From assembly GCF_000332095.2 (NCBI RefSeq), contig NZ_KI913949.1, positions 2,729,602 through 2,793,601 of the forward strand: a DNA stretch of 64,000 bases. The letters are read 5' to 3'. The notes under the pieces were generated by a model. That model saw only the letters and a list, made by a program, of their open reading frames with translations. It did no database searches and had not been told where the DNA came from. Source of the stretch: Leptolyngbya sp. PCC 6406 (GTDB lineage Bacteria > Cyanobacteriota > Cyanobacteriia > Phormidesmidales > Phormidesmidaceae). Shown in pieces: positions 45,875 through 60,956 of the stretch. The position numbers were made by a program, and so were the translations under genes. Numbering within the stretch: position 1 is the stretch's first letter; the number at the start of each line of letters is the position of its first letter.

Positions 45875-47312
45875 TCCGGTGCCTGTTCCCGAGCCCGCCG
45901 CCTATTCTTCCGTCCCTACCCTTGCCTATATGCTCCAGCGGGTCCGGCAGAGCCTACGCCAAACTATTCAGCGCCAGAGTCGTCCCCTCCAAACCCCGGT
46001 GCCGGAGGGTGAGGCTCAACGGGCTGCTGCCAAAGCCAATGTCGATGCCCTGGCAGCCCTGGATGCCCGCTTGGCTAATCCGGTGCTGCGGGTGGCGGTA
46101 TTTGGCTTGGTGAGCCGGGGCAAATCGGCGGTGATTAATGCTCTATTGGGGGAAGCGATATTGCCTACGGGGCCGCTCCATGGCGTTACTCGCTGGCCGC
46201 GATCGGTCTACTGGCGACCCCCTATCGATGCGGTGCGCGATCGCAATGATCTGCCCCAGATTGAACTCATCGACACCCCCGGCCTGGACGAAGTGGACGG
46301 CGAAGCCCGCAGCGCCATGGCTCAGGAGGTGGCCCATCAGGCAGATTTAATCCTGTTTGTAGTGGCGGGGGACATTACCCGCACAGAATACAGCGCCCTC
46401 GTGGAGCTGCAACTGGCCCGCAAGCCTCTAGTGCTGGTATTCAACAAAATCGATCTCTACCCCGAGACCGATCGCCAAGCCATCTACGATGCCCTGGGGG
46501 CGCTCTGGCGCGACAGCCCCCGACAGGCCAACGCCGCCCTGGCTGTGGACGACATTATCATGGTGGCTGCTGCCCCGGCTCCAGTGCAGGTGCGGGTGGA
46601 ATGGCCCGATGGCCGCATTACCCACGAGTGGGAAACGCCGCCTCCCGACATCACGCCCCTAAAAAAGGCCCTGCTGACCCTGGCCCGTCAGGATGGCATG
46701 ACCCTGATGGCCCTGAATACTCTGCGGGAGGCCGATGTGCTGGAAATGGATCTAGCCCAGCGGGCGATTGCCTTGCACCAATCTGATGCCGAAGCGCTGA
46801 TCTGGCGATTTGCCAAGTACAAGGCGCTGGCGGTGGCCTTTAACCCGATTGCGGTGTTGGATCTCCTGGGGGGACTGGTGGCGGATTTGGCCATGATTCG
46901 TGCCCTGGCAAACCTCTATGGTCTGCCCATCACCCGCCACGAAGCTCGACAACTGTGGCGTGCGATCGCAACCAGCGCCGGCACGCTGCTCCTCAGCGAG
47001 TTGGGCACTGGGCTACTGCTGGGGACGGGCAAAACCGCCGCCGCTGCCTGGAGTTTCTTCGACGGGGTTGGGGGGCTGACGGCACTGACCGGGGCCATGG
47101 CCGCCCAAGCCGGAGCCGCCGGATATGGCACCTACGCCGTGGGCAAAGCGGCCCAGGTCTATCTGGAACGGGGTTGCACCTGGGGACCCCAGGGGGTGAA
47201 ATCCGTCATGCAGGACATTTTGAGCCAGATCGATGCCAATTCGACGGTGGCTCGCCTACGGCGGGAAATTGAGGCGGAACTGGCAGCGGAGACTTCGGCT
47301 TCCGGATCCTGA
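45858..47312 (+). CDS. Era/dynamin-like GTPase with DUF697 domain
   Basis: 484 residues from the TTG at 45858; a GTG at 45879, 5 nt after the previous stop, is an equally good start. G1 FGLVSRGKSAVIN near 80-93, G3 DTPGLDEVDGEA, G4 LVFNKIDLY are all present. DUF697 follows with NPIAVLDLLGGLVADLAMIRALANLYGLP and hydrophobic Ala/Gly-rich spans. Members are thought to act at membranes in stress or remodelling; the exact function is unknown. Its partner is the degenerate P-loop protein just upstream, so a heteromeric pair is plausible. Confidence 0.83.
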   Translation: MSRQPNPVPVPEPAAYSSVPTLAYMLQRVRQSLRQTIQRQSRPLQTPVPEGEAQRAAAKANVDALAALDARLANPVLRVAVFGLVSRGKSAVINALLGEAILPTGPLHGVTRWPRSVYWRPPIDAVRDRNDLPQIELIDTPGLDEVDGEARSAMAQEVAHQADLILFVVAGDITRTEYSALVELQLARKPLVLVFNKIDLYPETDRQAIYDALGALWRDSPRQANAALAVDDIIMVAAAPAPVQVRVEWPDGRITHEWETPPPDITPLKKALLTLARQDGMTLMALNTLREADVLEMDLAQRAIALHQSDAEALIWRFAKYKALAVAFNPIAVLDLLGGLVADLAMIRALANLYGLPITRHEARQLWRAIATSAGTLLLSELGTGLLLGTGKTAAAAWSFFDGVGGLTALTGAMAAQAGAAGYGTYAVGKAAQVYLERGCTWGPQGVKSVMQDILSQIDANSTVARLRREIEAELAAETSASGS

Positions 47313-47455
47313 TAGGGGTAGGTCAGGTTATACAATGCCTTAGGACTGGAGGGTGGAGGGGTTTGGTGAACCCTGAGCGGAGTCGAAGGATGGAGGGTGA
47401 AGGGTGGTACCCGTCCATGACCAGGAAACTAGAGACGAGCGGAGAAAACATCACT

Positions 47456-47662
47456 ATGGCCGAGATTAACTGTGCCGAAGCCTGCGTTAACGGTTGTGTT
47501 CTGGGGGAAGACTGTCCCCATTTGGACTACCAAAAAAAGGCAACCCAGTTTATTCAAGACACTCCCCTGGATCAAATCCTGACCATGGCTGATGAAGCAG
47601 TGCGGAAGAGAATGATCGAGCGGGCTTCCCAGCCCCCCAAGTGGGTGTTCCCCGAGGAATAG
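47456..47662 (+). CDS. Small Cys-rich conserved cyanobacterial protein
   Basis: 68 residues from the ATG at 47456; the open frame continues upstream, but those codons come from a low-complexity repeat (GGATGGAGGGTGAAGGG). Three to four Cys at the N-terminus (INCAEACVNGCVLGEDCPHL) with C-x3-C-x3-C-x5-C spacing suggest metal or iron-sulfur binding. The rest is helical, with KKATQFIQDTPLDQIL and KRMIERASQPPKWVFPEE. Not a family I can name, though the pattern seems conserved in cyanobacteria. A perfect dyad follows the stop. Confidence 0.65.
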   Translation: MAEINCAEACVNGCVLGEDCPHLDYQKKATQFIQDTPLDQILTMADEAVRKRMIERASQPPKWVFPEE

Positions 47663-47670
47663 ATTGCTCT

Positions 47671-47703
47671 CAGGCCGATTGTGATAGCGATCACAATCGG
47701 CCC
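47671..47703. promoter_or_regulatory. Perfect dyad with CRP consensus TGTGA-N6-TCACA
   Basis: GGCCGATTGTGA-TAGCGA-TCACAATCGGCC, a 12-bp perfect stem. Its core equals the CRP/SyCRP1 consensus exactly. It starts about 10 bp after the stop of the Cys-rich protein gene and 180 bp before the next start, so it could be a cAMP-receptor-protein operator, a terminator hairpin, or both. No T tract follows, which favours the operator. Confidence 0.55.
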
Positions 47704-47809
47704 TGCTCTCCATCACCTTTGGGAATAACCGCCATCACGCAGATCAGCGCCGTGGAGTCACGGAGGTGCGCTAATAACATCACGGAGACATCCCCGTATC
47801 ATCACGGAG
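47691..47809. repeat. Six TCAC units at 22-bp spacing (iteron-like)
   Basis: TCAC begins at 47691, 47713, 47735, 47758, 47780 and 47802: spacings 22, 22, 23, 22, 22. The last three extend to TCACGGAG and the fourth from the end to TCACGCAG. The first is the right half of the CRP-like dyad. The sequence between units is not conserved, so this is phased spacing rather than simple tandem duplication. Confidence 0.65.
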
Positions 47810-47870
47810 TTTTTGACCGAAATCCATCATAGTTAAACAACATACGGTTCTGTTGTGACTCCCGACTGCC

Positions 47871-48149
47871 ATGACTTCCACGATGACTCCCACCGCCACC
47901 CCCATGATCCTGGCTCAGACTTCCCTGACCTCCAAGCGCACTAGCGTGAAGCGGATCGGTGTTGTCTACTGGCAGCTCTTGATGAAGGCCGGAATCCCCC
48001 AAGCCGATGCTCTCAAAATTGCCGCCGCGATCGCAAAATTTGACATCGTCAATCGCCGCCCCTCCTCAGCCCAAAAGCTCCTCATCTCCCGCTTCAGCCC
48101 CCTGATCTGCCGCGCTCAACTCTGGCGGAGTCAACTGCTGCTGTCCTAA
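47871..48149 (+). CDS. Small basic protein, unknown
   Basis: 92 residues, Thr-rich N-terminus then basic helical segments (RIGVVYWQLLMKAGIPQADALK, SSAQKLLISRFSPLICRAQLW). No recognised family. It is the first gene after the 22-bp phased repeats and a presumed promoter; GACTGCC just before the ATG is not a good ribosome site. It may be real because the frame is clean and sits in a good position, but the evidence is modest. An ATG at codon 12 is an alternative start. Confidence 0.45.
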   Translation: MTSTMTPTATPMILAQTSLTSKRTSVKRIGVVYWQLLMKAGIPQADALKIAAAIAKFDIVNRRPSSAQKLLISRFSPLICRAQLWRSQLLLS

Positions 48150-48189
48150 CCTTGAGGATTCTCAGAGATAAGCAGGTGGACATAATTAA

Positions 48190-48300
48190 ATGCTGTCATT
48201 CCGACCAAAGGAGGAATCTCGGACTCCGACAACGACCGAGATGTCTCGACTGCGCTTCGCTCCGTTACTCCGTTGGAGTCCCTCCGCAGCATGACAGAAC
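48190..48300. repeat. Dispersed long-hairpin repeat (GCTGTCATTCCGACC...GCATGACAG)
   Basis: Outer arms TGCTGTCATTC and GCATGACAG enclose GGAATCTCGG and CCGAGATGTCTCGAC. This is the widespread intergenic repeat of the form TGTCATTC...GAATCTC...GAGAT...ATGACA. Non-coding, between two convergent genes. Confidence 0.75.
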
Positions 48301-48335
48301 TACGTTTATTAATGTCCACCTACTTACTCCCCTGA

Positions 48336-48971
48336 TTAACGCGGGCGGGCTTTGACCTGACCCGGTTTAGCCATCGATACTTTGGCCTTCGCCCTCGATT
48401 CAATGCGGAATTCAGGAATATCCCAGAGTTCTTTTTCCTCTAGACAATACTGCTCACAGACCAAACTAAGCCGGGTGCCGGGACTGGTGACAGCATTCAC
48501 CCCATGGGTTAAATCGCCCTGGAAATGCAGTAAAAGGTTGAGTTTAGGCGTGATCCGTCCTACGGATTGAGAGCCCCGCCGCAGGACCAACTCACCGCCC
48601 ACCAGTTCCCTAGGCACCTGGACATAGAGCACACTGACATGCAGCGGTGGGGCAATGGTTTTGCAATAGGCCCGCAGAGAGCGGTCGATATGGGGATCTA
48701 CTCGCGATCCTTGCTGCAACATCAGGGGGTTGAGATAAAAGGCATTGCAGGTCGGCTGGAGCGCCCGATCTAGATAGGGCTTAAAAAATGGGAACCGCTG
48801 ATCGAGGGCAGATCGTCCCGAGGGCTTAAAGACCACCGAAAAGCCCCGAGTTCCAACAAAGTCCCGATTCAGATTATTGGTATCGAAATACTGACACGCC
48901 TGGATTTCACCGCGCAGAGTATGGAGATACTCCAGGTCAAAGGCATTGGGTTGGCAATGGTAATAGGGCAC
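48336..48971 (-). CDS. 2OG-Fe(II) oxygenase-like protein
   Basis: 211 residues. The 2-His-1-carboxylate triad is visible as HID in VDPHIDRSLRAYC and a later His in GDLTHGVNAV, with the 2-oxoglutarate-binding Arg in PGTRLSLVCEQYCL. GGELVLRRG lies between, as in prolyl-hydroxylase-type folds. It probably hydroxylates a small molecule or peptide; target unknown. Basic C-terminal tail (SRAKAKVSMAKPGQVKARPR). Convergent with the small basic protein gene. Confidence 0.78.
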   Translation of the reverse strand: MPYYHCQPNAFDLEYLHTLRGEIQACQYFDTNNLNRDFVGTRGFSVVFKPSGRSALDQRFPFFKPYLDRALQPTCNAFYLNPLMLQQGSRVDPHIDRSLRAYCKTIAPPLHVSVLYVQVPRELVGGELVLRRGSQSVGRITPKLNLLLHFQGDLTHGVNAVTSPGTRLSLVCEQYCLEEKELWDIPEFRIESRAKAKVSMAKPGQVKARPR

Positions 48972-49217
48972 GGAGCAAGGGATGCTGATGGGGTGAACTG
49001 GCTTTATGGACTGAGACTGAGTAGTTGCGTATCACGCAATCACTCAATACGCTCAAAGCCTTACCAAAAAAGGGACTTAAGACTGGTGCCAATAGCCATG
49101 GACTAGAATTGGACTAAATTCAGACGGCCTTTTGAGTGCGAAAATCTCTGACCGATCCTTGGTCCTTGCGCTGCCAAATTGTAGCAACCCCCGTCCATTT
49201 CTCGATCAGGCATTATT

Positions 49218-49616
49218 GACCAATCTTTTCGTAAGACCCACAAAGCACGAAGCAAGACCATAAACAAGGCTTGCGAGTCTCACAAAAAGACACCCCTTGT
49301 TGATTGCGTACTTGCATAATCTGAGTTCGGGCTAGGCTTCGCTGCCCATCCGCCAGGGAATCAATTCCCTGGCTCACAGCAAACGTCCGTTGAAACGGAC
49401 TCAAGATCAGAGCGAGACACTGAATCGACAGTCCATTGAAAATGGACTTGACCCTGTTAGCCGGGAATTCAAATTCCGGGCGGGGATGTCAGCACTTATC
49501 CCGAACTGAGGTTGATCAGTCTTTTTGCAAGACCCACAAGGTACGAAGCAAGACCGTGAACAAGGCTTATGAGTCTCACAAAAAGACACCCCTTGTTGAT
49601 TGCGTATTTGCATAAC
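49218..49616. repeat. 103-bp direct repeats enclosing palindrome cluster B
   Basis: The two repeats share AAGACCCACAA, CGAAGCAAGACC, AACAAGGCTT and GAGTCTCACAAAAAGACACC, then TTGTTGATTGCGTA. Between them lies cluster B (49333-49487): GCCAGGGAAT/ATTCCCTGGC, GTCCGTT/AACGGAC, GTCCATT/AATGGAC, and GCCGGGAATT/AATTCCGGGC. Cluster B is the uninterrupted version of cluster A at 17763-18063, inverted. Confidence 0.8.
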
Positions 49617-49708
49617 TGCGGCACCCAGTTTTTCTGTCCACAAAGACTTTCTTTCAATGAGATTCAACTGTATCGCAGCAAGACTCAATCCAGGCCGCAC
49701 AAGTCTCG

Positions 49709-49753
49709 GTATAAGATGAATAGTCTACACAGATGGGCCTAGCCAATCTCGCA
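49709..49753. repeat. Left flank repeat of the defence-like gene
   Basis: GTATAAG then AGTCTACACAGATGGGCCTAGC and AATCTCGCA. A related sequence (GTATAAG, AGTCCAAATAGATGGGACTAGC, AGTCTCGCA) lies at 55037-55090 in the same orientation, after the gene. The pair may mark the borders of an acquired segment. Confidence 0.5.
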
Positions 49754-52037
49754 AGACCTGTGCTGAGTCAGCAGAAGCTGCCATCTAGCATTTACCCACA
49801 AGAGCATTTCTTGCCATGAGGCTTAAGTATCTTATTCAGAGATCCAAGTCAGTTCGACTAAGTCTCTAAATAAGACATGCGATTTGGAAGGTTATGTCTT
49901 GAAACGAGCTGAAAAGCCTGCTAAGTCGCTTGGCAGGTGACAACGTGCTTAGGAAGCTGCTAGGGCGTAGAAGCCGCGCCCTAGCTCCCGTATGGGTCGC
50001 AGACAACCTGAAGTCAGGCGATCGCGATTCCAGTGGTGGGGATGGTGATTACGCCGGCGCAGGGGGAGGTGTTTGGTTTGTTGTGGTGGGTGAATGAGGC
50101 AATCGCTGCTTGAAATAGCTACAATCGCTCCTTAGAGGCAGAAACATACAGCATTTCCCCCTCTAGTGAGGTGCGAATTCGGGGCTGAAACCCTTATTTT
50201 GCCAGGATTAGGTGTACCTCACTAGCCTTGGAAAGGCCGTAATATTGCCCAAATCTTCAAAGCGTTATTTGAGATATTTCTTTTGAATGAGTGGTAGTGG
50301 TGGCTCTGGCGGATACGAATATCAACACAATGCTATTGGATATGTAGCTGCTCACATTTTGGCAGATGAATCACTTGAGTGGCTTGAAATCGGAGCCCCA
50401 GATATTCCAGTAGCCGTAGCTGCTGAAACAGGTGGACCGGGCGATGATCTTTCCATTACGCTTCACAATAATGTCTTAGTTGAGCTACAAGCAAAACATG
50501 GCTTACAGAAGGGAAAACTATTTGAACCACTTTTGAAGTTAGCCAAGGGGTTATACGAAAATCCAAATTTATATGGGGTCTTACTGACAGATACAACGGC
50601 TAGTCAGCCAATTCGAGAACACTTGCGTAAAGACCTACTAAAGATGGGACAAGGTCGCTTTGACAGCTTGAAGCCTATTACAAAAGAATTTCAAGAGCAG
50701 CTTGCTAACGCAAACCTGCCAAAAGATAGCTCGGGCATCTTTTGTAGGCTTCGTATTATTGTTCTGGACTTGGATGATGACTTACAAGGGGCCAAAATTG
50801 CTCAGATGCTTTTATCGAAACTGATTTCGGATCAGGATCAAGCGAGTGTGGTCTGGAAAATACTTTGTGACGAAGGACAAAGGCTCACTAGTAATCGTGG
50901 AAGAAGAGATCAAGAGACTTGGTATTCTCTCCTTAACAGCCATTCCATCCCTATCAGTAACAGATCACAACCTAAAGGATCAGAGCAGGAGAACTGGCGA
51001 GTAACTTGCCCGGTTCTCTTGGAACAGGTCGCAGAGAAATCTGTTCGGCCAAAATTGTTCTTTGAGACTTCTAATGATGACTGTAATTATCCCGTCATTT
51101 CCGCCTTTTTTGGACGTGAGGAAATCATACAAGAAATCAGTTCTGCAATTCAAGATAATGGAATGGTTATTCTTGGAGGGATTTCGGGGATTGGTAAATC
51201 TACCTTGGCGGCAAAACTAGCCCAGCAGATGAATGAAGAACATCCGGTACTGTGGTTAAATTGTGAAATCTACGGCCAACTAGAAAAGATTATCGTTAAA
51301 ATTTCGTCTTTTTTAGCTAATCGATTTGCAGATCAAAGTTTATCCCGAGCACTACAAATCTCAAAACTTGATGAAAACGATCGTTGCGAAATGGCTGTCA
51401 ATGCTTTACGTAGATATAAATGTCTTATGGTTTGGGACCAGTTTGACCAGAAGTATAATAATTCATTAATACCTCTTCTTAAAATAATCAGCCAGTTAGG
51501 ACACAACATTAAGCTTCTGATTACAACACAAGAATGGTATCCCATACACGAATTACTCAACCCTCCTCGTGTTTTCACTGTTGAAAGTTTAAGTTACCAA
51601 GCAAGTTACTCTCTTTTTAAGCACCATTCTCAAATTCTGGGGGTTCCTGCACCATCTATGTCAACCTTTAATCAGATATATTCAAGAGTTGCTGGACACC
51701 CCTATATTCTACTTCTACTCATAGGTTTAAGTGAGGTTTTTCCACTGACTAAATTACTGGAAGAGCTTCCTTGTTTTATAGATGAAGCTCATGCTTACAT
51801 TCAAGATAAAGTATTTGAAAAATTGCCTGTAGAAGCTCAGGGGCTTTTACTTAAGTTGTCAATATTTCGGTTTGATTTTGAATTGGACGCCGTCAAATAT
51901 CTTGAAGACTCATCAAAAAGACTTAAAATATTTGAGCTTTTGTCCAGAAGATTCTTGATAACTAGGATATCTCAGAAAGAAGCTCGATACGAACTACACA
52001 GTCTAGTGAAAAGTTATTCCTGCAAGCTACAAACTTC

Positions 52038-53438
52038 GGCTCTTCCGGTCTGGCTATGGACAAAGGGCTACTGAGCAGGGGAAATGGAGAGAGAAATAAA
52101 CGCTAGAAAGGCGTTAAGTGTTTGATATACAAGGGATTGGCTAGAATTAAAGGGTGAGAGAAAGTCGCCATATATGGGTGAGCGCCATGATCACAGAATC
52201 TGACGCGAGGCAATTGACAGAGCTACTGGGTCTTCCTGAGACAAAAGTAGAGGATATGACAATGATAGATGGGGTGGGGCTATTTTTTGTAATTAGCCCC
52301 ACCCGCCGAGATGCAGAGTGTCCCCGGTGTGGGAAGCGAAGTCGTCATTTGCATGAGAATCATCGGTATAACATTGAGGATTTGCCGTGGAATCAACAGC
52401 CCGTAGTGTTGCGAGTCAATCGCCGCCAGTTTTGGTGCCAGGAATGTGGACAAGTGTTTAGCGAAGAACTGGCCTTTGTTAAGAAAAGGCGGTTGTATAC
52501 GCAGCGGCTAGCGAAGCAGATTGTCGGCCAAGTGTTAGGGAGTAGCATTCACAGTGTGGCGGCTCGGACAGGGCTGAGTGACGAGCAGATTGAGACGATG
52601 ATAAAGGATGCCGGAAAGGCGTATTTACCCGAGAGCCCAGAACCGATTAGATATCTCGGGATAGACGAGATAGCGGTCGTCAAAGGTCAGGGTAACTATT
52701 ATGGGGTGCTAGTGAACCTAGAGACGCACCAGCCGATCACCCTTCTACCCTCACGAACACAAGAGGGATTGCGCCAAGTCCTTAGCCAATGGGGACCAGA
52801 GGTGCTTGAGGGGATTGAAGGGGTGAGCATAGACCTGTGGAAGCCCTACCAAAGTTTGGTAAAAGAGATGATGCCGAATGCGACCATTGTCGCGGATAGA
52901 TTCCATGTCACCAAACTCGTCAATGAGGAGTTAGATAACGAACGGAAAGCGGAGAAGAGAGCGGCCAAGAAGATCGCAAAAAAGGCTGAGAGGGAGCGCG
53001 TCATAGAGGGTCTTAATGGCAGTAAGTATGCGTTACTAAAGAACGAAGGGAATTTGAATGAGAAACAGAAGAAGAAGCTCATAGAAGTGAGCGAAGTATC
53101 CCCTAAATTAGCAACGATGCATCGATTGAAAGAAGAGTTCAGAGAAATCTTTGAATCCTTCGAGAATTGGGCAGAAGGGACGTTAAAGTTACTGGACTGG
53201 ATGGCGGATTCATCGACATTTTTCAATCAGAGTTGTGGCACGATTAAACGATGGTTTGATGAGGTGACATCATACTTTGAACTGAGAATAACTAATGGGG
53301 TTGTGGAGGGAATAAATAACAAGCTTAAGTTGATCAAGAGATTAGGTTATGGCTTTGGCAATTTTGACAATTTCAAGTTAAGAGCTTTGTTGCCGTGGGT
53401 ATTTCCTTTTGAAACACCATAGCCAGACCGGAAGAGCC
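52038..53438 (+). mobile_element. ISL3-family insertion sequence, 1401 bp, complete
   Basis: Ends GGCTCTTCCGGTCTGGCTAT and, inverted, ATAGCCAGACCGGAAGAGCC; flanked by CAAACTTC on both sides (52030-52037 and 53439-53446), a perfect 8-bp target duplication as expected for ISL3. Near-perfect ends and the intact transposase point to a recent insertion. Confidence 0.95.
52187..53422 (+). CDS. ISL3-family transposase
   Basis: 411 residues from the ATG at 52187, which has GGTGAG about 5 nt upstream; a GTG at 52154 would add 11 residues. The N-terminal zinc ribbon shows ECPRCGKRSRHLH and FWCQECGQVF. The DDE catalytic core is present: Asp in YLGIDEIAVVKGQ, Asp in IVADRFHV and Glu in NGVVEGINNKLK. A Lys-rich insert separates the second Asp from the Glu, as usual in ISL3. 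Its stop is 16 bp before the right end of the element. Intact and probably active. Confidence 0.95.
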   Translation: MITESDARQLTELLGLPETKVEDMTMIDGVGLFFVISPTRRDAECPRCGKRSRHLHENHRYNIEDLPWNQQPVVLRVNRRQFWCQECGQVFSEELAFVKKRRLYTQRLAKQIVGQVLGSSIHSVAARTGLSDEQIETMIKDAGKAYLPESPEPIRYLGIDEIAVVKGQGNYYGVLVNLETHQPITLLPSRTQEGLRQVLSQWGPEVLEGIEGVSIDLWKPYQSLVKEMMPNATIVADRFHVTKLVNEELDNERKAEKRAAKKIAKKAERERVIEGLNGSKYALLKNEGNLNEKQKKKLIEVSEVSPKLATMHRLKEEFREIFESFENWAEGTLKLLDWMADSSTFFNQSCGTIKRWFDEVTSYFELRITNGVVEGINNKLKLIKRLGYGFGNFDNFKLRALLPWVFPFETP

Positions 53439-54854
53439 CAAACTTCTCCTGAAGATTTGTTGGCATTGCATGAAAAAGCTGCGTTATATTATCAGTCATT
53501 ACCAGAAAAGCGCTACTTGGATGCTTTAGAGTTAATTCATCATGCCCTAGAGGCTGAATTAGATGAAACTGCAATAAAAACAGCTGAGCAGGTATTAGCG
53601 AGTTCAATAAATAGTGGTAAATATGATTACGCCTTGGATATTTCCTTGGGCCTTCTTAAGAATCCGAAAGTACGCGATTGGGGTTTTGTCAATCATTTTC
53701 GAGGTCGTGCTTTTCGCTTCAAGGAGAAACTTGAAGAAGCAAGAAGAGAATATGAAATTTGCTTATCTAAAGCAGGCAACGAATTTTATAGAATTTCAGC
53801 AAAAAGTGAAATAGCTAGTGTTCTACTTAAAATGTCAGCAAGAGAAGGGCAAGACAAATCAAAATTGTATGAGCTTGCTACAGAATACTGTATTGATTTA
53901 TTGAATTGTGATCAACCGAGAATAAGGCTTGGAGCTTTATCTATTTTAGGTAGTATAAAAGTTAATCTTGGCGAAAAAAATGAAGGCTTAGAAATACTTC
54001 TAGATGCTTTAGATATAGCTAAAAAAGAAGGCTTTCCTGAGCTGGTGTCTGGCATCAACTTTCACTTATCACAAATTTTTGAGAGTTTAAATGAGTTTGA
54101 AAAACAAATTAAATATTTGGAAGAAAGCCAATCTATCCAAAAATATATGAAAGAAAAACTCAATGTTTATGACGTTGAGGCTGAGTATTTTATATCCTCA
54201 GGACTTGGCAAAGCATACAGTAGGCTAAAAAGACATCAAGAGAGTGTCCCATATTGGGAGAAATGTGTTGAAATAGACCGCACCATAAATGTTGATCATC
54301 GTTTGGCCCACTCCTTAAATCATTTGGGAAAAAATCAATGTTTATTGAAAATTTTTGATCATGCTCATAACAATCTGCGTGAATCCTTAGGCATCATCCG
54401 CCAACATGAGATTAAAGATGATGGAGCAGAAAGGCATACCCTTGCATGGTTAACCGTAACTTCTTGGTACCTTGAATACTATGAACAGGCATTTGAATTT
54501 TATTTGGAACATAACTCTATGTCTAGATTAGAGAAAAAACACCCATACTTTTTCTCTTTTATGGATGAGTGCTCTCTTACAAAGGATGTTGATTTTTATG
54601 AGTTTCATGAAAATCAAGCTTTCATGTTACTGCTTCCTCAGAAGTATAAAATCCAAGAAGTTATGCAAGTAGCTGTAACAAGCATAATCAAGCGTAGACC
54701 CGATTTAGAGCAAGAGGCTTTATCTTTAGAGCTGCTTACCTTTGAAAGACCTGCTGCGCGAGGCTTTGGCCCTTCTAAGGCTTCTCCAAATCAGAAGTGC
54801 CCGTGTGGAAGTGGGAAAAAATATAAGTCTTGTTGTGGGAAGCGCCGAAAGTGA

Positions 54855-55258
54855 GCTTTGTTAAAGTCGTGAAAATATTTTCCTTACTGAAATTCAGTTT
54901 GGTTCTATAAAAGCCTTAGGGACTCGCAGAAAAATAATGCCAAATCCGAGTCACATAACCCCGATTCACAAACGGTCAAACTGTAGAGGCGAATGCCATT
55001 CGCCCTTTTGAATCGGGGGTAACTAAGCAGGATTTAGTATAAGTCGTGTAAGACTAGCAGTCCAAATAGATGGGACTAGCAAGTCTCGCAGAAAGACTCG
55101 CATTGAGTTGACCGAGTCTTTGTATGAGAATCCCCTGCTGCGCTGCTGCCCTAGGGCAGCAGGCTTAACCGATCCAAGGCACGATTTTTTAGATGGAATA
55201 CTCTAGGGGCTTCAGACTCATGAAATTTCGTTCATCCCCCTACAGCGATTTCCCCATC
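54855..55258. other. Gene-free region with dyads and the right flank repeat
   Basis: No gene. A nested dyad CCCCGATTCA...TGAATCGGGG (54959-55018) encloses GGCGAAT/ATTCGCC. The flank repeat 55037-55090 mirrors that at 49709. A perfect 20-bp palindrome CTGCTGCCCTAGGGCAGCAG at 55143-55162 lies between converging genes and is a likely bidirectional terminator. Confidence 0.7.
55143..55162. terminator. Perfect 20-bp palindrome between convergent genes
   Basis: CTGCTGCCCTAGGGCAGCAG. It lies between the defence-like gene (plus) and the 912-residue protein gene (minus). A stem with no true loop and no T tract is weak evidence for a terminator. Confidence 0.4.
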
Positions 55259-57997
55259 TCAATCAAACTGGGGTGGAGTTTCCGAAGGAGAGAGGCGACC
55301 GGGATCACTGGGGGCAGGACGATCGAGAGCGGGGGGAGCACTGTCGCCGCTAGCCCCAGCCCCATTGCCTGCCCCTGCGCCCGCCTGAACCGCTGCTGCT
55401 GCCGCTGCCGCCGCCGCCGCTGCCGGATCGGTAGGATTGGGATCAAAGGTTTCCACCGTCACCGATCGCAGAATCGGCTCCCCGATGCCATTACTGACTT
55501 TTAGCGTCAGCGTAATGCTGCCCGGATCCTGACTGAGGGGAAAGGGGGCACTGCCCCGGAGTCCCACTGTGCCCGGAGAAGGTGACAGTTCAGCCACCGC
55601 CGTCGATCCCCCTTCAATCTCCCAGGAAATCACCAACACTGGCGGATCCTGCCCCTGAACCACAGGAACCAAATATTTGGGCTGGGCCTCCTGGCCGTTA
55701 ATCTGGAACGACAGCAAGCGAATAGGGCGGGGAATTACCTTGACCAAATCCGTGACGATGGGTTCTGCCGAACTATCCGGCTCACTAAAGGCTACCGGAC
55801 TCAGCTCAAAGGTGTACTCCCCCACTTCCCCAATCCCCGTCGCCACATTCTGACAAATCAGCCGTACTTGAACCGTGCAAAAGGGTTCTAACTCACTAGG
55901 GATGACAAATTCTCCAGTTTCCGGATCGCGGAAACGATAGCGCCGTCCCCCCAGAACCGAGCCATCCTGAGGGCGTACCACTAGCAGGAGATCTTGCAGA
56001 TTTTCTGGCGCTGCCAGCACCCAATTTAGGAGAATGCCGTCGGCAGTGACGGGGGGCAACCCTTGAGGATTTTCCGCATCAAAGGGGGTGCCCTGCTCTG
56101 CATATTGGGCCTGCCCCGGCACCAATTCCAGCACGGTGGGTAGGGGAACGGGATCGATGACAATCGCCGAGGTGCGGATGGGGGCAATATCCCGCTGACC
56201 ATCCTTGGGAATCAGGGTCAGTTCAAAGATGTATTCCCCCGGCTGACGGGCGTCGGTGTAGACATTGCGGCAACTGAGGAGACGAGCTTGTAAGGTGCAA
56301 AAGGGGGCCAGGGCACGGGGCAGTTCGTCGCCGGAGAGGTCGTATTCCAACGGTCCACTAAGGACGGCTCCATCGGGGGTGAGCCCGGTGAGACGCAGGG
56401 TTTGGAGGCGGTGGGAATGCTGAATTTGCCAACCCACCCGCGCCCGATCCCCCTTGGCGGCGGAATAGCGTTCATCTTCCACAAAGAAGCTCAGGGCCGT
56501 AGGCACAGCGGGGGGGCGAAAAAATAGCCACCACACCAGCCATATCAGCAGCGCTAAGACCCCCAGCCCCGCCAAAATCACGAGCAGCAGATGCCACCAG
56601 GGGCGCGGCATCCAGGTGAAGTAGCCCTGGAACCCCTTGGTGGGCAAGGGTAGGGCGTCGGCATCGGCGATATCGACCTGAAAGTTAAACAACTGCCCAT
56701 TGCCGATAAAGGGACGCTGGCGAGAGCGGCTGGGCAGGACCGTCACCCCCACTTGGCGAGTTTGGCGGGGAGCCAGGGTCACGGTCTCCGCCTCTAGGGT
56801 GCAGGTGCAGAGTTCGGGATTGCCCAGCCCCCGGACTCCCAGGTTCAGGGTGCGGGGGCTATTGCCCTGGTTGGCCAGAAAAAGCTGAAAGAGGGCGGGT
56901 TGGGTGCGAACCTGATTGGCCAGCGTAATCAGCTCAGGCTGGAGCTGATAGATCGGCTTCACTTGCAGGTAGATCAGATCCAGCAGGGCTAGGTCAGGGT
57001 TATTTTCCGAAAGCAGTTGCAGCGTGGGGGTATAGATACTCGCTAGAGCTGCCTCTGGTGGCGAAAGGGTGAGCATGACCACACCCCGATCGCCGGGGTT
57101 GAGCCCTAGGCTGTCAGCAATCATCAACAGTCCCAACCCTTCGGGATCCTGAGGGTAGTCAAATTTCACCCAGTCAGGGGCTAGATCTAGACAGATCAGG
57201 CGAAAGCGGTCTACCTGCTCAGATCGGTTAAAGATCTGGATTTGGAATTGCAGGTGGTTTCCCGGTAGCACCGGCAGGGGTGACTGGGCACTGCTGACGG
57301 GGGTGATGGCGAAGGTGGGGTCAGCGGTCTGGGTCCGGTCCTGGACGGTGGGTAGGATCTGGATCTGTTGGGAATATCGAGCGGGGGGAAACTCGGGGTA
57401 ATGCTCTGGGGCATCTACCACCACCAGGTAGTTCAAGAGTCCCGGCATCACATCCACCGGAATCTTGAAGCGAAAGACCACTTCTCCTGACTGATCGGGG
57501 GCGAGGGCTAAGGCTCCCTGGCTGTCTTGGCACCACTGTCTCAGCGCTGGGGACATGTCGTCGATGAAGACATGGATAATGGCGCTCCGGGGGCCGCGAT
57601 TGCTAACGGTAATGCCTAGTTCAAAAGGTTTACCAGGGGTGACTAGATCCCGTCCGGGGGAACTCAGAATCACCGCTAGGGGTTTGGTGGGGCTGAGGGT
57701 TTGCAACAGACTATCGGCCACCTCCTGCTGGCGACGCTGGGGAGAATAGGCCCGGTAGCGGTCTTCCCCTAAAACAATAACCAAGCCCTGCTGGATCAAG
57801 GTTGCTATCTGAGATCGCACCTCTAGCTCTGGTAGCTCCATTTGGACTGCGATCGCATCAAAGTCCACAATGCCTTGGCGCAGCATCCACAGCATTAGCC
57901 GCCGCTGCCCTTCTGGTAAATCCAGGAGTTCTGCCAAGCTCTCAGGAGCGGCAGGCGCGAAGCCAGAGCTGCCAGAATCAGTCGAAGAATAGGTCAT
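55259..57997 (-). CDS. Large membrane protein: winged helix, Ig-like repeats, one span, unknown
   Basis: 912 residues. Residues about 20-95 look like a winged helix (LAELLDLPEGQRRLMLWML, DFDAIAVQMELPELEVRSQIATL, LVIVLGEDRYRAYSP). About 105-480 contains CARDB/NEW3-like beta repeats (PGKPFELGITVSNRGPRSA, GNHLQFQIQIFNRSEQVDRF, LFLANQGNSPRTL). One strong span follows (LLLVILAGLGVLALLIWLVWWLFF, near 488-512), then more beta-rich repeats. A run of about 13 Ala and a Gly/Ala/Pro-rich tail end the protein. The N-terminus is probably cytoplasmic and the repeats after the span outside, but this puts Ig-like repeats on both sides. Not a family with known function; the layout suggests a structural or sensory role. 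Confidence 0.75.
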   Translation of the reverse strand: MTYSSTDSGSSGFAPAAPESLAELLDLPEGQRRLMLWMLRQGIVDFDAIAVQMELPELEVRSQIATLIQQGLVIVLGEDRYRAYSPQRRQQEVADSLLQTLSPTKPLAVILSSPGRDLVTPGKPFELGITVSNRGPRSAIIHVFIDDMSPALRQWCQDSQGALALAPDQSGEVVFRFKIPVDVMPGLLNYLVVVDAPEHYPEFPPARYSQQIQILPTVQDRTQTADPTFAITPVSSAQSPLPVLPGNHLQFQIQIFNRSEQVDRFRLICLDLAPDWVKFDYPQDPEGLGLLMIADSLGLNPGDRGVVMLTLSPPEAALASIYTPTLQLLSENNPDLALLDLIYLQVKPIYQLQPELITLANQVRTQPALFQLFLANQGNSPRTLNLGVRGLGNPELCTCTLEAETVTLAPRQTRQVGVTVLPSRSRQRPFIGNGQLFNFQVDIADADALPLPTKGFQGYFTWMPRPWWHLLLVILAGLGVLALLIWLVWWLFFRPPAVPTALSFFVEDERYSAAKGDRARVGWQIQHSHRLQTLRLTGLTPDGAVLSGPLEYDLSGDELPRALAPFCTLQARLLSCRNVYTDARQPGEYIFELTLIPKDGQRDIAPIRTSAIVIDPVPLPTVLELVPGQAQYAEQGTPFDAENPQGLPPVTADGILLNWVLAAPENLQDLLLVVRPQDGSVLGGRRYRFRDPETGEFVIPSELEPFCTVQVRLICQNVATGIGEVGEYTFELSPVAFSEPDSSAEPIVTDLVKVIPRPIRLLSFQINGQEAQPKYLVPVVQGQDPPVLVISWEIEGGSTAVAELSPSPGTVGLRGSAPFPLSQDPGSITLTLKVSNGIGEPILRSVTVETFDPNPTDPAAAAAAAAAAAVQAGAGAGNGAGASGDSAPPALDRPAPSDPGRLSPSETPPQFD

Positions 57998-59531: not shown

Positions 59532-60956
59532 ATGACCGCCACCCAAGACGCCCCCAGAGTCCAAACCCTGGCCCCATCAAAAATTTCCACTGATCCCAGC
59601 CCCCAGGCTCTCGCCCCTGGTGGCCCAGATCCAGACAAGTTTGACTGGGCCGAGGCTTGGTATCCAGTCCACTATGTCGAAGATTTAGATCCCCAGCGAC
59701 CGACCCGTTTCACCCTGCTGGGTCAGGATTTGGTGATCTGGTGGGAGCCCCAGGCAAAAGCATGGCGGGTCTTTGCGAACCAATGCCCCCACCGTCTCGC
59801 TCCCCTTTCCGAAGGGCGCATCAATGAAGCGGGTCAGTTGGAATGCCCCTACCACGGTTGGACCTTCTCCGGCAGTGGAGCCTGTGAACAGATTCCCCAG
59901 CAGTCTCCGGAGACAGCGGCCCATCGCTCTCCCCGAGCCTGTGCCCATTCCTTGCCCACAGCGGTACGCCAGGGGCTGCTGTTCGTCTATCCCGGTCGGG
60001 TAGAAAACGCGCCCCAGGTGCCCGTCCCCATCATTGAGGCGGTGGAGGCGGAGCCCGAGGGCTGGGTGATGCTCAACACCTTTCGGGATCTACCCTACGA
60101 TGCCCTGACCCTGTTGGAAAACGTCCTAGACGCCAGCCACATTCCCTACACCCACCACAAAACTGTGGGCAAGCGGGAGAATGCTGCCCCCATGGAGATG
60201 ACGGTGATTGATCCCGGCAAACAGGGGTTCCAGGGGCTGTGGCCGGAGGGGCCGCGCAAGGGAAAACTGGGCACCCAATCCACCCGCTTTGTCGCACCGG
60301 GACTGATGTACCACGACCTCACTTCAAAGCAGTTTGGCCGCACCTTGACGGTGGTTTACGCTACGCCCATCCGCAAGGGGGAATGTCGCCTATTTGCTCG
60401 TTTTCCCTTCAAGTTTTCGTCACCACTACCCCGGTTTTTCATCGGAGTCATCCCCCGTTGGCTCAGCCACATCGGTAACAATGGCGTGCTGGAGGATGAT
60501 CAGATTTTCCTTCACCTCCAGGAGCGATTCCTGGCCCAGGCGGGGGACCAGCCCTATGCCCAAACCTGTTATCTGCCTACCCAGGCGGATCGCTATGTAA
60601 CTGCCTTTCGCCAGTGGGTGCAGCAGTTCCAGGCTGATCCCTTTGCGGGGGAATCTCTACCGCCAGAGTGGTCCCAGGCTGCCCTGTTGGATCGCTACCA
60701 GTCCCACACCCAACACTGTGGAAGCTGCCGCACGGCCCTGAGGCGGATTCAGCAAATCCGTCAGGTCGCTCTGGGGATCAGTGCGATCGCATGGTCCCTG
60801 ATTCCCCTCACCATCGCCCTTGCGGGTAGCCTATCCCTGGGGACGAGCCTTTTGCTCGCGGGAATTCCCCTGGCCACCACCGCCCTGTGGTTTTGGCTGG
60901 GCACCCTAGAGCCCCAATTCTCCGAGGGTCGCCGAATTCCCCCGCGTAATCTGTAG
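59532..60956 (+). CDS. Rieske non-haem iron oxygenase (PaO/Tic55/CAO-like)
   Basis: 474 residues. Rieske ligands: Cys85 and His87 in NQCPHRLAPLSEG, Cys105 and His108 in ECPYHGWTF. The mononuclear iron site follows (NVLDASHIPYTHHKTVG). The C-terminal CGSCRTALR carries the CxxC seen in PaO/Tic55-type proteins, and two spans at the end (VALGISAIAWSLIPLTIALAG and LLLAGIPLATTALWFWLG) anchor it in the membrane. Plant members act in chlorophyll breakdown; cyanobacterial relatives have mostly unknown substrates. CACCC start context is normal and the ATG at 59532 is the first. Confidence 0.88.
   Translation: MTATQDAPRVQTLAPSKISTDPSPQALAPGGPDPDKFDWAEAWYPVHYVEDLDPQRPTRFTLLGQDLVIWWEPQAKAWRVFANQCPHRLAPLSEGRINEAGQLECPYHGWTFSGSGACEQIPQQSPETAAHRSPRACAHSLPTAVRQGLLFVYPGRVENAPQVPVPIIEAVEAEPEGWVMLNTFRDLPYDALTLLENVLDASHIPYTHHKTVGKRENAAPMEMTVIDPGKQGFQGLWPEGPRKGKLGTQSTRFVAPGLMYHDLTSKQFGRTLTVVYATPIRKGECRLFARFPFKFSSPLPRFFIGVIPRWLSHIGNNGVLEDDQIFLHLQERFLAQAGDQPYAQTCYLPTQADRYVTAFRQWVQQFQADPFAGESLPPEWSQAALLDRYQSHTQHCGSCRTALRRIQQIRQVALGISAIAWSLIPLTIALAGSLSLGTSLLLAGIPLATTALWFWLGTLEPQFSEGRRIPPRNL

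What the first reader, a model, noticed from the sequence alone, without database searches (positions are those of the whole stretch)
50287..54854. Reconstructed 1052-residue nuclease-STAND-TPR-SEC-C protein, a possible undescribed defence architecture
Excision of the ISL3 element and one target duplicate restores a single frame (KLQTSPEDLL across the junction). The joined protein has a DUF4297/Cap4-like nuclease region, a STAND NTPase with Walker A and B, TPR-like sensor repeats and a C-terminal SEC-C zinc motif. Nuclease-STAND-TPR proteins are known anti-phage sensors (Avs-like), but I do not recall one ending in SEC-C. The surrounding DNA is AT-richer and repeat-flanked, as in acquired islands.
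Basis: partly seen in the sequence, partly recalled or inferred. Interest (0 to 1): 0.85.

Follow-up and report, generated by a model that had tools for sequence, protein, structure and literature searches.

The report
Broken, likely phage-defence sensor gene
A cyanobacterium carries a probably borrowed gene that looks like a one-protein anti-virus alarm (a DNA-cutting head, a molecular switch, a sensor and an unusual zinc tail), recently cut in two by a jumping gene.

Summary
A frame from 50287 is interrupted by a 1,401-bp ISL3 element (52038-53438) with identical 22-bp ends and an 8-bp target duplicate; the frame resumes at 53439 and ends at 54854 (581 + 471 codons). Ten near-identical copies, this one included, lie in the genome, so the break is recent. 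The first 228 residues match no Pfam model, but an AlphaFold2 model (pLDDT 85.5) is a PD-(D/E)xK fold; its best solved matches are anti-phage nucleases (HerA-linked DUF4297, Cap4, LmuA, Avs3, Hachiman). Then follow a STAND NTPase (narrowly NB-ARC), TPRs and a SEC-C zinc motif. Nine further proteins with this head were read; four have a NACHT above cut-off; four lie near restriction, Hachiman-like or CBASS-like genes. In the own genome the head is 79% DNA-identical to that of a NACHT-HEAT gene and the DNA match ends at the domain edge: a swapped effector module under purifying selection (dN/dS about 0.1). I read it as an abortive-infection sensor working like Avs3 or bNACHT25, but a member of neither by model score. 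No intact four-part copy and no other STAND with SEC-C turned up in limited searches. New variant of a known kind; defence is inferred, not shown.

The parts
50287..50970 (+). N-terminal effector module, residues 1-228: Cap4/DUF4297-like PD-(D/E)xK nuclease; conserved G9, Q13, E47, G52-D53-D54, E66-x-Q68-x-K70
   Evidence: AlphaFold2 pLDDT 85.5, pTM 0.85; fold matches Z 13-14; conservation over 8 rows
51094..52017 (+). STAND NTPase, narrowly NB-ARC type, residues about 270-577; Walker A at residue 297, Walker B at 379, KLLITTQ at 409, GxP-like GHPYIL at 470
   Evidence: Pfam NB-ARC just above cut-off; phmmer to PH0952 (6mfv) E 2.1e-10 over 269-577; motif positions, motif names recalled
52030..52037 (+). 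target-site duplicate, first copy (CAAACTTC)
52038..53438 (+). ISL3-family insertion sequence, 1401 bp, 22-bp terminal inverted repeats
   Evidence: ten full-length copies in the genome, this one included
52154..53422 (+). ISL3 transposase
   Evidence: NF033550 E 1.7e-102; DDE_Tnp_ISL3 3.5e-67
53439..53446 (+). target-site duplicate, second copy
53439..54854 (+). C-terminal remainder of the broken gene (471 codons): TPR sensor region, then tail
   Evidence: TPR_8 2e-13, TPR_12 4e-11; lone-sequence model too poor to use (pLDDT 45.5)
54789..54842 (+). SEC-C zinc motif (CPCGSGKKYKSCC), residue 1035 of the joined count
   Evidence: PF02810 27.8 bits, above cut-off 20.4; SecA and YchJ zinc peptides in the PDB, E 0.001-0.005; position
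50099..50144 (+). 46-bp upstream stretch shared (85%) with the upstream region of the paralogue in L038

Best explanation
The gene encoded, until recently, a single-protein intracellular immune sensor that works like Avs proteins and nuclease-type bNACHT proteins. The TPR region (with the SEC-C tail) senses a phage protein or a disturbed host component; sensing releases the STAND NTPase, which binds ATP and oligomerises; that brings the N-terminal Cap4-like nuclease heads together so that they cut DNA, stopping phage and probably killing the cell. The nuclease head is a plug-in module exchanged among different STAND receptors. The gene was acquired laterally and has been inactivated by a recent ISL3 insertion that separates head and switch from the sensor. 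Shown here: gene anatomy, insertion, domain families, predicted nuclease fold with conserved acidic and Q-x-K residues, module sharing, defence neighbourhoods of four relatives. Inferred: DNA cutting, oligomerisation, trigger, lateral gain, loss of function. Speculative: the SEC-C tail docks the sensor on a partner such as the ribosome, as the SecA tail can.
For: Fold: best of five models pLDDT 85.5/pTM 0.85 (the five: 72-85), order H-E-E-E-H-E; Foldseek rows 1-13 (E 5.6e-5 to 5.8e-4) are Cap4 and Avs3, rows 14-17 (E 0.0014-0.05) Hachiman, LmuA and DUF4297; TM on the query 0.39-0.62; second aligner Z 14.1 (HerA-DUF 9c1m), 13.3 (Cap4), 13.2 (LmuA), 13.1 (Avs3), 12.7 (Hachiman) over 185-203 residues. 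Sequence: PADLOC candidate PDC-M54A N-terminus E 5e-10 for the head alone; the L079 relative hits LmuA at 3.5e-4. Invariant in 8 of 8 rows: Q13, E47, G52, D53, D54, Q68, K70 among others. STAND and TPR. Modules: head DNA 79% identical to L038 over window 50276-50965, L038 being NACHT-HEAT; head 68% identical in L085; dN/dS 0.10 window-L038. Context. Lateral gain: GC/GC3 and patchy presence. Passages: Avs1-4 nuclease effectors cause altruistic death (PMC12931631); bNACHT25/32 have an N-terminal PD-(D/E)XK DNase and D48A abolishes defence (PMC12169576).
Against: No experiment. Of nine neighbours of the window gene scanned, none is a clear defence gene: one hits LeoA/LeoBC (E 5e-12, over its GTPase region) and one a CRISPR-'associated' 2OG model (2e-83). 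No intact copy of the exact four-part protein was found, so the complete architecture rests on one broken gene. Neighbours of L038, L039, L042 and L085 were not scanned. Some chains of the same nuclease families score far lower in the second aligner (E. coli DUF4297 8zgi Z 7.2; LmuA 9uxi Z 5.8). The protein match to L038 runs weakly beyond the head, to residue 549 (45% overall), so the receptor parts are not wholly unrelated. The TPR part could not be modelled. Avs models match only at the P-loop.
Confidence: 0.78

Rival explanations
1. A signalling STAND protein (AP-ATPase/MalT-like) for stress or development, in which the head is a regulated nuclease acting on the cell's own nucleic acid (programmed cell death) rather than an anti-phage device.
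For: The best solved relative of the STAND part is the TPR sensor PH0952, not a known defence protein. STAND and TPR parts are common in the phylum: the first piece matches 107 of 386 genomes, mostly over the NTPase, and the C-terminal piece 214 of 386, through TPRs or through the SEC-C end (no listed match but its own spans both, and the list is cut). Neighbours of the window gene look like housekeeping genes.
Against: The head is rare and patchy, sits near restriction, Hachiman-like and CBASS-like genes or integrases in relatives, and the gene is foreign in composition. Cell death and defence are not exclusive.
Confidence: 0.12
2. The nuclease-like head is catalytically dead and serves only for oligomerisation or DNA binding.
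For: The active-site assignment is by position and conservation; no residue-level superposition was made.
Against: E47, D53, D54, Q68 and K70 are invariant in 8 of 8 rows although the most distant row is only 29% identical to the window; dN/dS 0.10; an acidic residue of the PD-(D/E)XK head of bNACHT25 (D48) is essential (PMC12169576; correspondence inferred).
Confidence: 0.06
3. The split gene still works: head-NTPase (595 aa, its last 14 codons running through the target duplicate into the IS) and sensor piece act as two proteins.
For: Both halves keep open frames, and the second listed ORF has a TTG start inside the IS at 53409.
Against: Ten near-identical IS copies mean there has been little time for decay to show, so open frames are no sign of function; promoter-like sites in the region are not clearly above chance (14 against 9.4, sd 3.0); STAND control normally needs the sensor in cis (recalled).
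Confidence: 0.05

Closest known systems
Avs (AVAST) sensors with nuclease heads, Avs1-4, e.g. Avs3 (8dgc)
   Same: N-terminal Cap4-like nuclease fold (Z 13.1, 203 residues); central STAND NTPase and C-terminal repeats (recalled for Avs3)
   Different: about half the length of the 8dgc chain (2028 residues); Avs models hit only the P-loop (Avs4 16.9 bits against a cut-off of 1500); SEC-C tail
bNACHT25/bNACHT32 (clade 6 bacterial NLR-related proteins)
   Same: N-terminal PD-(D/E)XK DNase plus STAND NTPase; the DNase is needed for defence (passages of PMC12169576)
   Different: the NTPase here is below the NACHT cut-off (21.1 of 26.7) and just above that of NB-ARC; TPR and SEC-C instead of NCH1. 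Their sequences were not compared here
PADLOC candidate system PDC-M54 (A+B)
   Same: the head is a relative of the M54A N-terminus (E 5e-10); a true M54A/B pair was found in G004
   Different: no whole-protein match; no M54B among nine neighbours scanned
Cap4 / LmuA / HerA-DUF4297 / HamA nucleases
   Same: fold of the head, best rows
   Different: there the nuclease is fused to SAVED or works with SMC, HerA or helicase partners (partly from PDB titles, partly recalled); here with STAND and TPR
PH0952 (6mfv) STAND-TPR sensor
   Same: STAND part E 2.1e-10; TPR sensor by its title
   Different: 653-residue chain whose match starts at residue 10, so no room for a head; archaeal (recalled)

Membership tests
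Cap4/DUF4297-like PD-(D/E)xK nucleases (superfamily) | alpha-beta3-alpha-beta core matching solved members | tested here: met
   predicted model
Cap4/DUF4297-like PD-(D/E)xK nucleases (superfamily) | conserved acidic residue(s) before strand 2 and E/Q-x-K in strand 3 | tested here: met
   D53, D54, Q68, K70 invariant in 8 of 8 rows; position 66 is E in seven and D in one; strand positions
Cap4/DUF4297-like PD-(D/E)xK nucleases (superfamily) | match to a Pfam family of this superfamily by sequence | tested here: not met
   0 of 8 heads match any Pfam model at E up to 10
Cap4/DUF4297-like PD-(D/E)xK nucleases (superfamily) | DNA cleavage | not testable with these tools
   -
STAND NTPases, NB-ARC/AP-ATPase branch | NB-ARC model above its cut-off, Walker A and B | tested here: met
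   24.1 bits against 23.5, a narrow pass; other STAND models have better E-values but miss their cut-offs; motif positions
Avs (AVAST) | family model over the whole protein | tested here: not met
   pieces searched apart: Avs4 E 0.003 on residues 271-322 only; 16.9 bits against 1500
Avs (AVAST) | binding of phage terminase or portal | not testable with these tools
   -
bNACHT proteins | NACHT model above cut-off | tested here: not met
   21.1 bits against 26.7; met by relatives L038, L040, L043, L079, not by L041 and L072 (18.7, 20.6)
PDC-M54 | full-length M54A with an adjacent M54B | tested here: not met
   only partial matches; none among nine neighbours scanned
SEC-C motif proteins | PF02810 above cut-off | tested here: met
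   again by genome search, 31.9 bits

The most novel reading that the evidence does not exclude
The SEC-C tail tethers a STAND immune sensor to the translating ribosome (or another SecA-tail partner), so that the TPR region inspects phage proteins as they are made: a translation-coupled nuclease-STAND alarm, a sensing mode I did not meet in the passages seen on Avs5 and bNACHT25.
Probability: 0.12. Interest if true: 0.8.

Novelty: new variant of a known kind. Interest (0 to 1): 0.52.

Why it matters
It adds an effector family without a Pfam model to nuclease-STAND immunity. In one genome the same head, still 79% identical in DNA, sits on two different receptor types, a direct picture of effector swapping between NACHT and NB-ARC-like immune receptors. 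The SEC-C tail suggests a testable link between immune sensing and the protein-synthesis or export machinery. The recent insertion may also show a costly immune gene being switched off.

Tried and rejected
Sequence-only search for the head's fold: its profile against PDB sequences gave nothing (best E 0.17, unrelated) and Pfam gave 0 of 8; structure was needed. Lone-sequence model of the C-terminal piece: pLDDT 45.5, not used. Plasmids: the head matches one record at 1e-3 (Rhizobium pRLa11; again), the C-terminal piece none at 1e-8; phages: the head none at 0.01. Viral contigs: the single-protein scan found no relative, two alignment scans found one contig (the same place twice).

SEC-C on STAND proteins elsewhere. 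In 194 genomes of the class only two SEC-C matches lie in frames over 240 aa: the window gene and a 739-aa frame in G461 that by eye is a NERD-like nuclease. Many SEC-C-end matches lie in frames of about 430-460 aa in small genomes of the phylum; three such loci read were two 430-445-aa proteins I cannot name and one SecA, and their similarity faded under composition correction. All are lower bounds.

Rfam over 47000-56500: nothing at gathering score. Considered and rejected: island with shared terminal repeats; a second copy of the same whole protein in the genome (only head-sharing paralogues and P-loop matches).

Literature: no relevant paper joining SEC-C with STAND, TPR or anti-phage terms among the rows listed (20 of 48, 20 of 29, 15 of 234, 10 of 30); the main texts of PMC7159879 and PMC8195603 have 0 occurrences of 'SEC-C'. 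The library is open-access only.
Full report
1. The observation. The frame opening at 50287 runs to 52074, but its last 14 codons run through a target duplicate into an insertion. The insertion is 52038-53438, 1,401 bp, with identical 22-bp terminal inverted repeats and the 8-bp duplicate CAAACTTC on both sides. Its transposase passes the NCBIfam ISL3 cut-off (343 bits against 180). Codon phase is continuous over the site: position 52030 starts codon 582, and the second duplicate at 53439 carries the frame on to the stop ending at 54854. Ten full-length copies of the element, this one included, lie in the genome, all 100% after rounding (bit scores 2516-2527), nine on contig C1 and one on C3, besides four weaker fragment matches. 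The insertion is therefore recent.

2. Host and composition. No tool names the host. I infer a cyanobacterium: all 11 plasmid records that match the transposase at 1e-100 and all 7 that match the Rieske protein at 59532-60956 at 1e-50 are cyanobacterial (one row is not listed, but is counted by genus name). The two gene pieces have GC 0.40 and 0.37 and GC3 0.33 and 0.29; seven other window genes have GC 0.54-0.63 and GC3 0.58-0.70; the IS has GC 0.47. The gene is compositionally foreign. The claim of flanking repeats was not upheld: the left flank holds a dispersed repeat (46 matches in the genome counting itself, some being pieces of one copy) bounded by two 104-nt direct repeats, and left and right flanks share nothing significant.

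3. Domains. In the first piece Pfam sees only the NTPase. NB-ARC is the one STAND model above its cut-off (24.1 against 23.5 bits); AAA_16, nSTAND6, nSTAND1 and nSTAND3 have better E-values and miss theirs narrowly; NACHT is below (21.1 against 26.7). phmmer finds the STAND part of PH0952 (6mfv) at E 2e-10 over residues 269-577. The second piece has TPR_8 (2e-13), TPR_12 (4e-11) and SEC-C (27.8 bits, cut-off 20.4).

4. The head. Residues 1-228 match no Pfam model and, in PADLOC, only the candidate PDC-M54A (5e-10). Foldseek's first 13 PDB rows (E below 0.001) are Cap4 (from 5.6e-5) and Avs3 (1.2e-4); the next four (E 0.0014 to 0.05) are Hachiman, LmuA, DUF4297-HerA and LmuABC. The second aligner's first 12 rows are HerA-DUF 9c1m (Z 14.1), Cap4 (11.4-13.3), LmuA (12.3-13.2), Avs3 (13.1) and Hachiman (12.7), over 181-203 residues; the next row, the restriction enzyme EcoT38I, has Z 9.1. 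Other chains of the same families score lower (LmuA complexes 5.8-8.0, E. coli DUF4297 6.2-7.2). D53/D54 precede strand 2 and E66-x-Q68-x-K70 lies in strand 3; D53, D54, Q68, K70, E47 and Q13 are invariant in 8 of 8 rows. I take these as the active site by position and conservation; that is inference.

5. The module is shared. The same genome has two more proteins with this head: L038, 1,133 aa with NACHT (28.7 bits, cut-off 26.7) and HEAT repeats, and L039, 938 aa with a STAND-like NTPase and TPRs; no SEC-C was among its Pfam matches. The DNA match between the window gene and L038 (79%) covers window 50276-50965 and stops at the end of the head; a 46-bp upstream stretch also matches. At the protein level the match to L038 runs on weakly to residue 549, so the receptor parts are distant relatives rather than unrelated. 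dN/dS over the head is 0.10 (dS 1.04). A genome of the same family, G531, has the head on a 718-aa protein that by eye is a NACHT protein, 68% identical over residues 10-245. More distant members, 1,103 to about 1,370 aa: L040 (same class), L041 (Hephaestia), L042 (Geminicoccaceae), L043 (gammaproteobacterium), L072 (Rhizobium plasmid), L079 (viral contig). NACHT is above cut-off in L040, L043 and L079, weak in L041 and L072, and L042 was not scanned (it aligns nearly end to end with L041 and L072). The head profile was found in 4 of 386 genomes of the phylum (own; G064; G004 with a full PDC-M54A, L080; G038 with a short frame) and in 2 of 63 of the family (own and G531).

6. Neighbourhoods. 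Within about 8 kb of the head-bearing gene: in L040 a BanI-like restriction enzyme (1.6e-112) and a C5 methylase (3e-94); in L043 a HamA (Pfam 5e-10; no PADLOC match at 1e-10), a HamB-like helicase (4e-70; also PDC-M23B 8e-65), an Mrr nuclease and a phage integrase; in L072 an E1/E2/JAB protein of CBASS type and an integrase, on a conjugative plasmid; in L079 a type I restriction protein and another protein with a NACHT just below cut-off whose N-terminus hits LmuA (3e-7); in L041 an integrase. I did not scan the neighbours of L042, L038, L039 or L085 by model. The window gene's own neighbours (nine scanned) show no clear defence system.

7. Mechanism. By analogy with nuclease-type Avs proteins and bNACHT25/32: the repeats sense, the NTPase oligomerises, the heads cut DNA and the cell dies or stops (passages of PMC12931631, and PMC12169576, where D48A in the PD-(D/E)XK domain abolishes defence). 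In the window genome the insertion separates sensor from effector, so loss of function is likely. What the SEC-C tail does is unknown. In SecA the same kind of motif binds 70S ribosomes and, in a solved structure, SecB (passages of PMC6620043; 1ozb). The same paper also reports that removing only this motif raised SecA's affinity for ribosomes (KD 160 against about 640 nM), so it may tune rather than simply tether. A docking role is plausible and untested.

8. What is known and what is new. Works like: Avs and nuclease-bNACHT. Member of: the Cap4-like nuclease superfamily by predicted fold, NB-ARC STAND by a narrow margin; not Avs, bNACHT or PDC-M54 by model score (membership table). Possibly new: a head family without a Pfam model, its sharing between NACHT and NB-ARC-like receptors inside one genome, and a SEC-C tail on such a protein. 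The last was not found in 78 SEC-C frames from viral contigs, nor in 194 genomes of the class apart from the window gene, nor in the literature rows listed; all three are limited in reach. SEC-C-like ends do occur in defence-labelled models (E1-E2, E2, PDC-S12), so the tail is not foreign to defence proteins. The complete four-part architecture rests on this one broken gene.

Noticed in passing
window 49216-49615: A roughly 200-bp dispersed repeat (49317-49513) with 45 further matches in the genome, here bounded by two 104-nt direct repeats (89% alike); the matches lie at 49312-49521, so the direct repeats themselves are hardly among the repeated part.
   Followed up: partly
L079 3740-15941: Viral contig IMGVR_UViG_2667528172: two adjacent genes with nuclease-like heads and NACHT-like NTPases (1192 and 1339 aa), a DUF697 GTPase and a type I restriction protein running in frame into an SMP-30-like C-terminus.
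   Followed up: partly
L083 1963-4152: A 729-aa protein of another genome of the class with an apparent NERD-like nuclease region (by eye) and a C-terminal SEC-C motif: possibly a second nuclease with this tail.
   Followed up: no
L080 2887-9407: A PDC-M54A/M54B candidate defence pair in a distant genome of the phylum (G004); M54A begins with a distant relative of the head.
   Followed up: partly
window 48336-48971: Reverse-strand 2OG-Fe(II) oxygenase matching nearly full length (2e-83) a PADLOC model labelled CRISPR-associated; no CRISPR-cas genes were looked for.
   Followed up: no
G000:C1:1249721-1250190: Fragments 77-88% identical to the ISL3 element, apparently an older decayed copy beside ten full-length ones elsewhere.
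   Followed up: no
L206 and L207: 430-445-aa proteins of unknown function ending in SEC-C in small genomes of the phylum.
   Followed up: no
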